Positions 39,428 to 53,507 of a stretch of 64,000 nt of DNA are shown here, piece by piece. Location: contig OZ029923.1 of assembly GCA_964023275.1 (NCBI GenBank), forward strand, positions 6,541,229-6,605,228, in the 5' to 3' direction. This DNA comes from Norana najaformis. Taxonomy: Eukaryota; Annelida; Clitellata; Crassiclitellata; Hormogastridae. The stretch's first letter is position 1. Each line of letters opens with the position of its first letter. The position numbers were made by a program, and so were the translations under genes. The notes under the pieces were generated by a model, which saw only the letters and a program-made list of their open reading frames with translations, did no database searches and was not told the DNA's origin.

Positions 39428-41248
39428 TCATTTAAATCCCATGGCAACCCCGACCACATTCTGAATGCGATTAGTTTGGGTATAACAGCCGCAGCCGCCA
39501 AAATTGAATTCCCCAAACACGAATAAATACTCTGGTAGATAGCGTTCGTCAGGCTGTCTCACGCAGTTCGAAAAGATCTGATCGCAGAACGGCCAGGTGG
39601 TGTTGTCCAGGTAGGTGGAAGGCTTGAATCCTGAATAGTTCGGGAACAGACTGATTTGGCTGCTGGGAGATGCATCGCAGTTGCTGAAGCTGACGTTTAC
39701 TCCGTTGACCCGAATCCCTTGGATGTTTTCGTTGGATGCAGACTCGATCGGGAGGAAACCGAAATACAGGTAGGGCAGCTTCAGAATGTCCAAATTTACC
39801 GGGTCCTGGTATCCGGTATTTTCGCTCAGGCCGACTTTTAGAGGTATATGTCTGCAGTTAGAAAATCACAGACTGAGTCGATATTTAACTAAGCATTCAC
39901 AGATTTACTATTTTGAGTGGTATGTGTCTGCAGTTAGTTTAAAGGTCAGAGAATGAGTCGATATTTAACTATGGTTAGTTAAAAGGTCACAGACTGAGTC
40001 AAAATTTAACTATGATAATAATTATAATAATAAGACAATTTATATAGCGCCGTATCACAGCCGAGGCCGAAGAAAAGGGCGCTGTACATGGGTTAAAAAA
40101 CAAAACTCAACTACAGTCATAAGATATCCTAAAAGATGTCTTGAGTCGTGACTTGAATGTGTCCAAGGATGGGGCATTCGTCACATTGTGAGGAAGACTG
40201 TTCCACGCAGTTAGTTAAAAGGCCACAGACTGAGTCGATATTTAACTGCAGTTAGTTGAAAGGTCACAGACTGGATCGATACTTAACTGCGCTTAGTTAA
40301 AGGGTAACAGACTGAGTCGATATTTAACTAAGCGTTCACAGATCTACTACTCTGAGTTGTGTATATATATATATCTATATATATATATATATATCTGTCG
40401 TTAGCAGATCAAATATAGACCTACTATTAACACAACTTCCACAGATTTAATACACCATTACGCACCACAGACAGCTTATTGTACTGGAATAGATTAGATT
40501 AAATTGGATTAGATGGGATTGGATTAGATTAGATTAACTCAGATTAGATTCACTTGGACCGGCTACAAGAAGACTTAATATTCAGGAGTCTGAACTCCAC
40601 ATACGAATATTGCGGTAGCTGTTTGATAACGGCACAATATTGAATGCCGTCCGTCTTCCTGTAGCAGAAACGGAAACTGGTTTTGTTGGTAAACATCAGC
40701 GCCACTTCTTCGCTTGTCAGCTGAGAGAGAAACGTTGGATTGATGAACGTGTATCCTCCGTCGATCGAGTCCATGTCACAGTAGACCTATCCATACACAC
40801 AACAGTCAACCAAAGTCTAAGTCATTCCGTCTAAGTCATTCCCATTTTTCTACGAGCATTGTTTCCATTCCAGCATCGAGAACAAGACGATACAGGTTTT
40901 GAAGTAGCTCTATAGACGTAGTTTTGGGAGAAATAAAAAGATTTTTTCAGCAGACCTACACATACACACAGCAACTTCTTTGATAGATTTCACCAGTAAA
41001 CTTTGACATTGTTAGGTTAGAATGAAGATCCGACCTTGCACAACACATAGAAATTTCATGAATTATAGCCCAATGCGTTTGTCTATCTCTACCGGGTTTT
41101 AGTAAGTAAATTCCAATAGTATTTACGGTTTATCCCACCTCTATGACTTTCCCGAACACAGTTCCGACGAGGTATGTTCCACTTGGAGTAATTGGAATCT
41201 TCAGTTTCTTATTAACACATGCATTCTGTCCGTAGATACACAGCAACT
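39428..41248 (-). CDS. C-terminal module of gene A (exons 10-12)
   Basis: Exon coding lengths are 110, 182 and 424 nt, the same as in genes B and C where present. It starts [17 protein letters not shown], then [20 protein letters not shown], a string that resembles the start of fibrinogen-like domains (SG-Y, YCDM, DGG-YT), but the rest does not follow the fibrinogen fold: [20 protein letters not shown], then [28 protein letters not shown], and a Cys-rich end [19 protein letters not shown] cannot name this domain. Odd residues against B and C include SIDGG for T-(D/E)GGG. Confidence 0.82.
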
Positions 41249-53200: not shown

Positions 53201-53507
53201 GTGCTTGTGTGAAAAAGAGAGATGCGTTAGGACTACAACTTTCACAAACATAAAAGGAGGCAGATTTACTCAAGTTAAAGATCTATACAATACACAAAAA
53301 TCTACTTATTGCAACTTACAAGGCAACATTTTCTGCAAATGTGGCCTACGCTATGTATGGGCCATAAGCATAGTGGCTTAGGCCTAAGTTGTAACGCTAC
53401 AGGTCATGATATCGCAATTGTCTGACAAAAATTAAGTTCATACCATCTTGTGTCGAAGCGAGTGAAATGGAACAGAGAAGTAAGAGCAGAGGCGACACAG
53501 CGGCCAT
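39428..53507 (-). CDS. Gene A: secreted protein with five L1/neurofascin-like Ig domains and a novel C-terminal module (12 exons, 761 aa)
   Basis: Exons on the minus strand: 53507-53444, 51774-51669, 50907-50534, 50286-50170, 49285-49177, 46412-46219, 45804-45664, 44279-44118, 42666-42364, 41248-41139, 40786-40605, 39851-39428 (TGA). All borders are AG/GT and phases close exactly (2286 nt). Exon 1 is a signal peptide ([17 protein letters not shown]). Residues about 22-523 form five Ig domains with Cys/Trp/Tyr-x-Cys signatures (YEWTKNG then [21 protein letters not shown] then [14 protein letters not shown] then [18 protein letters not shown] then YKCQASNGY), closest in order and wording to Ig domains 1, 2, 3, 4 and 6 of neurofascin/L1. 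Residues about 524-761 are the module shared with genes B and C. There is no FN3 domain or transmembrane helix after the Igs, so it should be secreted. Many N-x-S/T sites. A role in adhesion or recognition is inference. Confidence 0.88.
39852..40345 (+). repeat. Tandem array around the last acceptor of gene A
   Basis: Units read CTGCAGTTAGTTAAAAGGTC, ACAGACTGAGTCGATATTTA. The first unit touches the splice acceptor of exon 12, and a second copy of acceptor plus first exon bases lies at 39919-39935. Confidence 0.8.
40011..40215. mobile_element. Repeat inserted into a tandem array in gene A intron 11
   Basis: TAATAATTATAATAATAAGA, TTATATAGCGCCGTATCACA and TCGTCACATTGTGAGGAAGA interrupt an array of roughly 40-80 bp units that continues on both sides. 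Confidence 0.5.
42030..42205 (+). mobile_element. LINE 3' tail in gene A intron 9
   Basis: CCAAACACCACCCACCGTAG, TTGACCTGGAACCGAATCC and GAGCGCCTGTGAATAAGCTG match the family. Here the block site has only GCGTCTGACTC, that is, no expansion. Confidence 0.75.
42364..51774 (-). CDS. Ig cassette of gene A (exons 2-9)
   Basis: Ig1 spans exons 2-3 (begins [18 protein letters not shown]), Ig2 exons 3-4, Ig3 exons 5-6, Ig4 exons 7-8 and Ig5 exon 9. Splitting each Ig over two exons is the gene structure typical of the L1/neurofascin/contactin class. Domain borders fall at phase-1 introns, while introns inside Ig1 and Ig3 are phase 2. Relative to neurofascin the fifth Ig seems absent: the domain with [19 protein letters not shown] (like Ig4) is followed directly by one starting [10 protein letters not shown] (like Ig6). 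That one-to-one matching is my reading by eye. Confidence 0.8.
42880..43690 (+). repeat. Long GATA/GACA/GATG tetranucleotide block in gene A intron 9
   Basis: About 800 nt of alternating blocks of GATA, GATG and GACA units with interruptions. It gives a long open minus-strand frame made only of Leu/Ser/Ile/Tyr/Cys, which is an artefact. Confidence 0.95.
44386..44610 (-). mobile_element. LINE reverse-transcriptase C-terminal relic, second type
   Basis: The minus strand reads [40 protein letters not shown] and [16 protein letters not shown], then a stop: the classical end of a LINE polyprotein. It lies in intron 7 of gene A, between exons 7 and 8. Confidence 0.8.
45890..46155 (+). repeat. CTT/TCTTC-rich pyrimidine tract in gene A intron 6
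   Basis: Impure CTT and CCT repeats lie between exon 7 (45664-45804) and exon 6 (46219-46412). Confidence 0.9.
46735..46930 (-). mobile_element. tRNA-derived SINE copy, reverse
   Basis: The complement reads ATTCGAGCCTCCTCCCCTGA, GACGGTTACTGTGTTGTGAT and GCGCCATCGATTGATGC, the 19672 family. Lies in gene A intron 5 beside a CATA tract. Confidence 0.65.
46960..47430 (+). repeat. CATA tract with an internal duplication of a SINE end
   Basis: CACTCCACGTTGCAAAGCGA occurs at about 46895 and again at about 47228, each followed by ATACATAAATAATATCTACC and CATA repeats, a roughly 330-bp duplication. Confidence 0.85.
47725..47950 (+). mobile_element. Related LINE-type 3' tail before a GAT tract
   Basis: AGCCGGCAAATAAGCTGGTC and GACACTGAGAAATTTGGAGA followed by ACATGACATAACATGACGTA repeats resemble the family tail. 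The GAT tract follows directly. Confidence 0.45.
47960..48050 (+). repeat. ATG/GAT trinucleotide tract
   Basis: About 30 units; poly-Met, poly-His or poly-Ile ORFs there are artefacts. Confidence 0.95.
48045..48255 (-). mobile_element. tRNA-derived SINE, second family
   Basis: Same element as 37925-38130: AGATTCGAACCCGCGACCCT on the plus strand is the complement of the B box. It abuts the GAT tract. Gene A intron 5. Confidence 0.75.
49339..49435 (+). repeat. AAGGT pentanucleotide tract in gene A intron 4/5 region
   Basis: GTAAGGTAAGGT-type units with decay. Similar TTACC or AAGGT clusters occur at 5960-6080, 33355-33420 and 34110-34165. Confidence 0.8.
49906..50160 (+). repeat. 38-bp tandem repeat next to gene A exon 4
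   Basis: About seven units of ACATGACTAACCTACGGTGA followed by CCTCGGTATAGTAGTCAC. The array ends about 10 nt from the donor of exon 4 (50170). Confidence 0.9.
51885..52190 (-). mobile_element. LINE 3' tail with expanded CAGG block
   Basis: The complement of the family tail starts with an ATTACG-type end (ATCGTAATCGTAATC), continues with GCGCCCAACGAAAGCTAAGT and TTATTCACAGGCGCTCGGTC (partly duplicated), then the CAGG tract, then the complement of CACCCACCTTAG. It lies in intron 1 of gene A. Confidence 0.75.
52048..52141 (+). repeat. CAGG tract, about 23 units
   Basis: A pure tetranucleotide run inside a reverse-oriented LINE 3' tail; same element position as the CCTG tract at 585. Confidence 0.95.
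53038..53205 (-). mobile_element. tRNA-derived SINE copy, reverse
   Basis: The complement has GCCTCCTCCGAGATGGTTAC, TTGAGCAAGTCATTTACTCA and GGCGCCATTGACTGATGC, the 19672 family. Lies in gene A intron 1. Confidence 0.65.

What the first reader, a model, noticed from the sequence alone, without database searches (positions are those of the whole stretch)
39428..53507. L1/neurofascin-like Ig cassette fused to an unrelated secreted module (gene A)
Twelve exons with perfect phase agreement give a 761-residue protein in which five Ig domains of L1/neurofascin type are followed not by FN3 repeats and a membrane anchor but by a module with fibrinogen-like opening (SGTY, VYCDM, DGGYT) and an unfamiliar Cys-rich end (GGCGCYTQ). 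This architecture is not one I know from described adhesion proteins. Seen: exons, domains, signal peptide. Inference: a secreted recognition or matrix protein.
Basis: partly seen in the sequence, partly recalled or inferred. Interest (0 to 1): 0.85.

Follow-up and report, generated by a model that had tools for sequence, protein, structure and literature searches.

The report
Secreted five-Ig protein with fibrinogen-like tail
A single animal gene appears to join the outer part of a cell-surface receptor family (five immunoglobulin domains) to a small secreted fibrinogen-like protein from the neighbouring gene cluster, giving a predicted soluble recognition protein of an unusual make-up.

Summary
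On the minus strand, 53507-39428, twelve GT-AG exons with agreeing phases encode 786 residues (not 761): signal peptide, five Ig domains, then a 238-residue module. Pfam finds five Ig stretches and no FN3; the best solved match is neurofascin, 4e-38. The module opens with a fibrinogen-like YCDxxxxGGGW stretch; gene A's own copy scores just under the curated cut-off, gene B's over it. The remaining ~190 residues match no Pfam family.

The window's own 608-Mb genome shows where both halves come from. The module is a stand-alone family: 24 last-exon matches on three contigs, 18 in the array that begins with gene A; genes B and C next door are members without Ig. The Ig half is the ectodomain of a 5-Ig single-pass receptor family without FN3: closest on C3 (64% identity), with 49 exon hits in one array on C15. 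Near gene A no membrane exon of that family was found, nor a second signal peptide in intron 9. Both halves look constrained (dN/dS about 0.15-0.25).

Best reading: an exon-fusion chimera, secreted, FREP-like in plan but not a FREP. No transcript evidence.

The parts
53444..53507 (-). gene A exon 1: ATG and signal peptide [21 protein letters not shown] (ends phase 1)
   Evidence: spliced model; hydropathy 1.88 over 19 residues; resembles the C3 receptor's [22 protein letters not shown]
51669..51849 (-). gene A exon 2: first half of Ig1
50534..50907 (-). gene A exon 3: second half of Ig1, first half of Ig2
   Evidence: 61% identical to the C3 copy
50170..50286 (-). gene A exon 4: second half of Ig2
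49177..49285 (-). gene A exon 5: first half of Ig3
46219..46412 (-). gene A exon 6: second half of Ig3
45664..45804 (-). gene A exon 7: first half of Ig4
   Evidence: about 70% identical to the C3 copy
44118..44279 (-). gene A exon 8: second half of Ig4
42364..42666 (-). gene A exon 9: Ig5 (ends phase 1)
   Evidence: 63% identical to the C3 copy
41249..42363 (-). gene A intron 9, the fusion point: no membrane exon of the receptor family and no strong second signal-peptide exon found
41139..41248 (-). gene A exon 10: start of the module (Cys, SGTY), 110 nt
   Evidence: same size as gene B exon 2
40605..40786 (-). gene A exon 11: VYCDM..GGYTF opening of the module, 182 nt
   Evidence: same size as gene B exon 3; NF040941 E 1e-6, just under cut-off
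39428..39851 (-). gene A exon 12: unnamed C-terminal part with [10 protein letters not shown], stop, 424 nt
   Evidence: same size as gene B exon 4; 69-74% identical to the last exons of B and C
59395..59461 (-). gene B exon 1: ATG and signal peptide MATMSWFLGILLIAVSFETIKA (ends phase 1)
58768..58877 (-). gene B exon 2 (module), 110 nt
57843..58024 (-). gene B exon 3 (module), 182 nt
56585..57008 (-). gene B exon 4 (module), 424 nt, stop; gene B = 260 residues, no Ig
63396..63590 (-). gene C, exon matching A exon 11 (tblastn extent, may run past the donor; gene cut by the window end)
62106..62528 (-). gene C, last exon (from its first conserved codon by tblastn to the stop)

Best explanation
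Gene A is one real chimeric gene. A copy of a membrane receptor gene (signal peptide plus eight Ig exons for five Ig domains) came to lie upstream of the last member of a tandem array of small secreted proteins with a GGGW-type opening; splicing from the phase-1 end of the last Ig exon to the phase-1 start of the module's first exon joined them, and the receptor's membrane and tail exons and the module gene's own signal-peptide exon dropped out. The product is predicted to be secreted: the Ig cassette would supply the binding surface of a cell-surface recognition receptor, and the fibrinogen/intelectin-like module would supply a second binding or assembly site, so that the protein works as a soluble, bridging recognition molecule in the manner of an Ig-plus-lectin effector. 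Shown: gene structure, domain make-up, relatives of both halves in the same genome, dN/dS below 1 for both. Inferred: the order of events, that it is transcribed as one unit, secretion, bridging action, and any role in immunity or self-recognition.
For: Phase-consistent 12-exon model with exon sizes 110/182/424 shared with gene B; gene B's signal-peptide exon and gene A's Ig exon 9 both end in phase 1, so either splices in frame to the module. Module copies on C11, C8 and C10; gene B and a C10 copy (L048) begin with their own signal peptide and show no Ig match, and a C8 copy (L047) has a signal-peptide-like start and no Ig match, so stand-alone is the likely ancestral state. C3 copy of the Ig cassette: signal peptide like gene A's, the five cassette segments by alignment, membrane helix WWVGLIIGLLLL (hydropathy 3.5), tail; a C7 copy has a closely similar membrane exon and one C15 gene a similar one. 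Three such membrane exons and the C3 tail find nothing in the window at E below 0.07, and nothing credible near gene A. No signal-peptide candidate of normal strength in intron 9 (best 1.38 against 2.43 and 2.49 for the true ones). dN/dS 0.18-0.25 (module, A against B) and 0.15-0.21 (Ig, A against C3). No hydrophobic segment in A beyond the signal peptide, and no hydrophobic C-terminus.
Against: No transcript or protein evidence was at hand. The phase match at the joint would arise by chance in one case of three. Synonymous divergence is high (dS about 0.8-1.8), so the dN/dS figures are rough and reflect both lineages, not gene A alone. Reading through the exon 9 donor gives a stop after two more codons (GE*), so a truncated Ig-only product is possible. 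Signal peptides were judged by hydropathy and likeness, not by a dedicated predictor, and in the gene B control the true exon ranked only third by that score. Gene A's own fibrinogen-like opening scores just under the curated cut-off. Binding by either half is not shown.
Confidence: 0.66

Rival explanations
1. Two adjacent genes: an Ig-only soluble protein that ends just after exon 9, and a separate module gene (exons 10-12) with its own, unseen first exon.
For: Reading through the exon 9 donor meets a stop after GE. Gene B and a C10 copy, the module genes whose start was read, have a first exon of their own.
Against: In the 1115 bases of intron 9 the best signal-peptide-like start scores 1.38 with a weak donor, below the median (1.65) of 300 random stretches of that size, while the true first exons of A and B score 2.43 and 2.49; the score is coarse, since two other starts outrank the true exon of B. 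Gene B's signal peptide finds no second copy in the window at E below 1. Exon 9 has a good donor (GTGAGT) and the phases fit.
Confidence: 0.16
2. Gene A is a decaying or non-functional by-product of a duplication at the edge of the array.
For: It is a single copy at the edge of the array; it lacks the membrane exon and tail; its last exon differs more from gene B's (69%) than those of the other eight copies of its type do (89-99%).
Against: No stop or frame break in 786 codons; dN/dS about 0.12-0.25 against relatives in both halves; by inspection of the cysteine positions each of the five Ig domains keeps a plausible pair (positions).
Confidence: 0.1
3. An extracellular-matrix or adhesion protein without immune function: the Ig domains bind a neural or epithelial partner and the module anchors the protein in the matrix.
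For: Nearest solved Ig arrays are neurofascin, contactin and Robo. Fibrinogen-like openings also occur in matrix proteins such as tenascin-R. This rival accepts the chimera and differs from the best explanation only in function.
Against: The parent receptor family is expanded in a tandem array with 49 exon hits, a pattern more usual for recognition or immune families than for neural adhesion proteins (general knowledge). This does not exclude it.
Confidence: 0.3

Closest known systems
Gastropod FREPs / VIgL proteins (PMC7588048 and PMC5433772, passages read)
   Same: N-terminal Ig domains followed by a C-terminal fibrinogen-type module; secreted (predicted here); members of multigene families.
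   Different: FREPs have one or two V-type Ig domains, an interceding region and a whole fibrinogen domain with the WW motif. Gene A has five Ig domains and only the opening of the fibrinogen domain, with no WW in the module. An interceding coiled coil was not looked for.
L1/neurofascin/contactin family of Ig adhesion proteins
   Same: Best sequence match of the Ig array among solved structures, in register over Ig1-Ig4.
   Different: Five Ig domains, no FN3, no anchor. In the C3 relative of this genome no FN3 was found either.
Intelectins (X-type lectins, e.g. XEEL)
   Same: Best solved match of the module's opening (profile of seven members, E 1.7e-4, 37 residues); intelectins too join a fibrinogen-like opening to an unlike remainder (recalled).
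   Different: No significant match beyond the opening; calcium- and glycan-binding residues not compared.
Stand-alone GGGW-opening proteins of the same genome (genes B, C and the C8, C10, C11 copies)
   Same: Same module; same exon sizes and phases as gene B.
   Different: No Ig match in the C11 array or in the C8 and C10 stretches read.
5-Ig single-pass receptors of the same genome (C3, C7, C4, C15 array)
   Same: Same Ig cassette; 64% identity to the C3 copy over 484 codons.
   Different: A membrane helix was read in the C3, C7 and first C15 gene, and a tail in C3; gene A has neither. The C4 copy was seen only as Ig hits.

Membership tests
FREP (VIgL) | one or two N-terminal V-type IgSF domains | tested here: not met
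   five Ig stretches (Ig_3; I-set in four). As to type, V-set also passes its whole-protein cut-off (33.8 against 26 bits) but with no single stretch passing, so the number is clearly unmet and the type is not settled; definition from passages of PMC7588048
FREP (VIgL) | C-terminal whole fibrinogen domain with PS00514 motif W-W-x(3)-C | tested here: not met
   gene A module: Fibrinogen_C 12.1 bits, cut-off 22, profile positions 16-46 of 221 only; one Trp (732) in the module
FREP (VIgL) | interceding coiled-coil region | not tested
   exon 9 (Ig5) is followed directly by exon 10; no coiled-coil predictor was run
FREP (VIgL) | secreted | tested here: inconclusive
   signal-peptide-like start and no other hydrophobic segment; no predictor or experiment
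L1/neurofascin family | six Ig domains followed by FN3 repeats (recalled) | tested here: not met
   five Ig stretches, no FN3 in Pfam at E up to 1
L1/neurofascin family | membrane helix and conserved cytoplasmic tail (recalled) | tested here: not met
   hydropathy of gene A
L1/neurofascin family | Ig1-Ig4 sequence similarity in register | tested here: met
   residues 45-451 against neurofascin 7ok5, E 4e-38; other Ig adhesion families also match
Fibrinogen-like YCDxxxxGGGW opening (NF040941) | match over the curated cut-off of 30 bits | tested here: inconclusive
   gene A 28.6 bits (E 1e-6), just under; 3 of 7 members over it (gene B 40.7, C10 copy 47.2, second-type copy 32.5); three members lacking the first module exon score 14.2-14.8
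5-Ig receptor family of this genome | five-Ig cassette | tested here: met
5-Ig receptor family of this genome | membrane exon and tail | tested here: not met
   no match to three membrane exons or the C3 tail near gene A in the window

The most novel reading that the evidence does not exclude
Gene A is a newly made soluble effector arising outside the FREP lineage: a large, tandemly expanded family of 5-Ig membrane receptors (49 exon hits in one array) gave its recognition domains to a secreted lectin-like module family by a single in-frame exon fusion, making a soluble counterpart of a cell-surface recognition system. It would be an independent, convergent origin of the 'Ig plus lectin-like' effector plan.
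Probability: 0.35. Interest if true: 0.7.

Novelty: new variant of a known kind. Interest (0 to 1): 0.5.

Why it matters
It may catch domain shuffling with relatives of both donors still present in the same genome, so the order of events can be tested by comparing related species. If the product is a soluble recognition protein, the Ig-plus-lectin-like plan has arisen more than once in animals. The module's last ~190 residues matched no Pfam family, and the receptor array on C15 is a candidate recognition complex worth study in its own right.

Tried and rejected
Relatives of the module's last exon in viral contigs and in bacterial/archaeal genomes: none confirmed. A whole fibrinogen domain: rejected, only the opening matches. 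An FN3 or membrane segment in gene A: not found. Ig exons elsewhere in the C11 array: none at E up to 1e-4 over 6.541-6.735 Mb, leaving out one stretch that reads N. A mollusc marker (haemocyanin beta-sandwich, PF14830) was not found, but the control rang nowhere, so the phylum stays open; a COX1 search to settle it did not complete. Literature: the terms GGCGCY, GGGW with intelectin, Ig-plus-fibrinogen phrases, VIgL terms and Ig-expansion terms gave no paper describing this architecture among the titles and abstract starts listed (one search returned no paper). Only three papers were opened, by passages. This is one open-access library, not proof of absence, and no animal protein database could be searched.

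A recheck showed that 3 of 7 do and that gene A is just under it; the text now says so. Recent module copies B and C show a higher dN/dS (0.42-0.51, last exon) than A against either; with 140 codons I make nothing of it. Structure prediction was off, so the fold was not examined.
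Full report
What was checked. That it is an animal is inferred from its genes; the phylum was not determined. Gene A was rebuilt from splice sites: twelve exons on the minus strand from 53507 to 39428, all internal junctions GT-AG, phases agreeing, no stop before the end, 786 residues.

Domains. Pfam finds Ig_3 in five stretches (1.5e-41), I-set in four, and no FN3 at E up to 1. Against solved structures the Ig part matches neurofascin over residues 45-451 (4e-38), then contactin-2, Robo2 and many other Ig proteins (447 distinct sequences at E up to 0.1, best 60 shown), so 'neurofascin-like' is the nearest but not an exclusive label. 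The only strongly hydrophobic segment is the start (1.88 over 19 residues; next best 1.07), and the C-terminus is not hydrophobic, so secretion is predicted.

The module. Exons 10-12 (110, 182 and 424 nt) equal in size exons 2-4 of the next gene, B, whose exon 1 is a signal peptide ending in the same phase as gene A's last Ig exon. The opening matches NCBIfam NF040941 'fibrinogen-like YCDxxxxGGGW' in 7 of 7 members at E up to 1, but over the cut-off of 30 bits in 3 of 7: gene B 40.7, a C10 copy 47.2, a second-type copy 32.5. Gene A has 28.6 (E 1e-6); three members that lack the first module exon have 14.2-14.8. Pfam Fibrinogen_C reaches 17 bits in gene B and 12.1 in gene A (cut-off 22), and is seen in 3 of 7 members at E up to 1. 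A profile of seven members finds intelectins best among solved structures (1.7e-4), over its positions 3-39 of 221 only. The rest, about 190 residues, has no match. Canonical fibrinogen domains are a separate and large set in this genome: 160 matches, 150 of 437 candidates scored, not all listed, none of the listed rows in the module array.

Where the halves come from. A module query finds 57 exon matches (62 of 62 candidates scored): by my count 24 are last exons, 18 on C11 in 6.580-6.710 Mb (9 like A, B and C at 69-99% identity to B, 9 of a second type at 51-54%), 3 on C8 and 3 on C10, one of the latter with two stops inside the match. Gene A is the copy at the edge of the array. A search of C11 6.541-6.735 Mb, less one stretch that reads N, finds no Ig exon besides gene A's. 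A C10 copy has a signal peptide and first module exon just upstream and no Ig match; a C8 copy has a signal-peptide-like start upstream and no Ig match, but its first module exon was not located. The remaining C8 and C10 copies were not read upstream; the Ig search lists no row next to them, but it scored only 82 of 462 candidates.

An Ig query finds the best paralogue on C3:40597-45172, then hits on C7, C4, C12, C14 and an array on C15 (83 matches). The C3 gene has a signal peptide like gene A's (CSISLSRTQD against [10 protein letters not shown]), the five cassette segments by alignment, a membrane exon WWVGLIIGLLLL and a tail of about 280 residues. Pfam finds only Ig families in it, with four I-set stretches; a cysteine of its Ig3 is replaced. 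A C7 copy has a closely similar membrane exon, and the first C15 gene a similar one. A C15 query gives 132 matches (146 of 146 candidates scored), of which I counted 49 of the Ig5 type on C15 between 22.459 and 23.813 Mb; some may belong to one gene.

The fusion. Gene A lacks the membrane exon: three such exons and the C3 tail find nothing in the window at E below 0.07, and the best of these lies far from gene A. Intron 9 holds no signal-peptide start of normal strength: best 1.38, against 2.43 and 2.49 for the true exons of A and B and a median of 1.65 in 300 random stretches. In the gene B control the true exon ranked third by this score, so the test is coarse. dN/dS is 0.18-0.25 for the module (A-B, 238 codons) and 0.15-0.21 for the Ig part (A-C3, 484 codons), with dS 0.8-1.7. 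The simplest account is one in-frame exon fusion at phase-1 borders. I did not date it.

Function. That the protein is secreted is predicted from sequence. That its Ig part binds a partner and its module a glycan or matrix follows from the families they resemble, not from a test. The plan is that of snail FREPs, but two defining features of FREPs were tested and not met (Ig number; whole fibrinogen domain; definition from passages of PMC7588048). It is therefore filed as a new variant of the Ig-plus-lectin-like kind, not as a FREP. An expansion of Ig receptors in one array recalls the 41-member Alr family of Hydractinia mentioned in PMC11999971 (passages); kinship was not tested.

Noticed in passing
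G000:C15:22459169-23813304 (L045 is one gene's end): Tandem array with 49 Ig5-type exon hits of the 5-Ig receptor family over 1.35 Mb, nearly all on one strand; the one gene whose end was read has a membrane helix. A candidate recognition complex.
   Followed up: partly
L044 and L046, tail ends: The tail of the C3 copy (...MTSEV) and two reading frames near the C7 copy (...SSEV, ...CSEV) share a C-terminal SEV, which resembles a PDZ-binding end (recalled); the C7 frames were not spliced to the receptor.
   Followed up: no
G000:C11:6597816-6708687: Two types of module gene are interspersed along the array. At two places (near 6613976 and 6670271) a type-1 start (signal peptide and first two module exons) is followed by type-2 exons with no type-1 last exon between.
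   Followed up: partly
window 41850-42170, 51920-52190, 455-865, 15810-16112: A dispersed repeat whose frames read like [30 protein letters not shown] recurs here and in L046 and L047; possibly a short interspersed element.
   Followed up: no
window 28589-28999 (-): Calcipressin (RCAN) exon, Pfam PF04847 E 4.2e-11.
   Followed up: no
window 35553-35828 (-): AAA ATPase fragment (PF00004 E 2.4e-7) that looks like a diverged VCP/CDC48 type (recalled).
   Followed up: no
window 1687-16480 (+): Coiled-coil frames, perhaps one large gene, with one 780-residue open frame at 10033-12372 and no Pfam match for it at E up to 0.01.
   Followed up: no
whole genome: Large canonical fibrinogen-domain repertoire: 160 matches with 150 of 437 candidates scored, many in clusters on C7, C12, C6, C13 and C2.
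   Followed up: no
L048:1650-2708: Reverse-transcriptase-like open frame of a retroelement in the stretch upstream of a C10 module copy.
   Followed up: no
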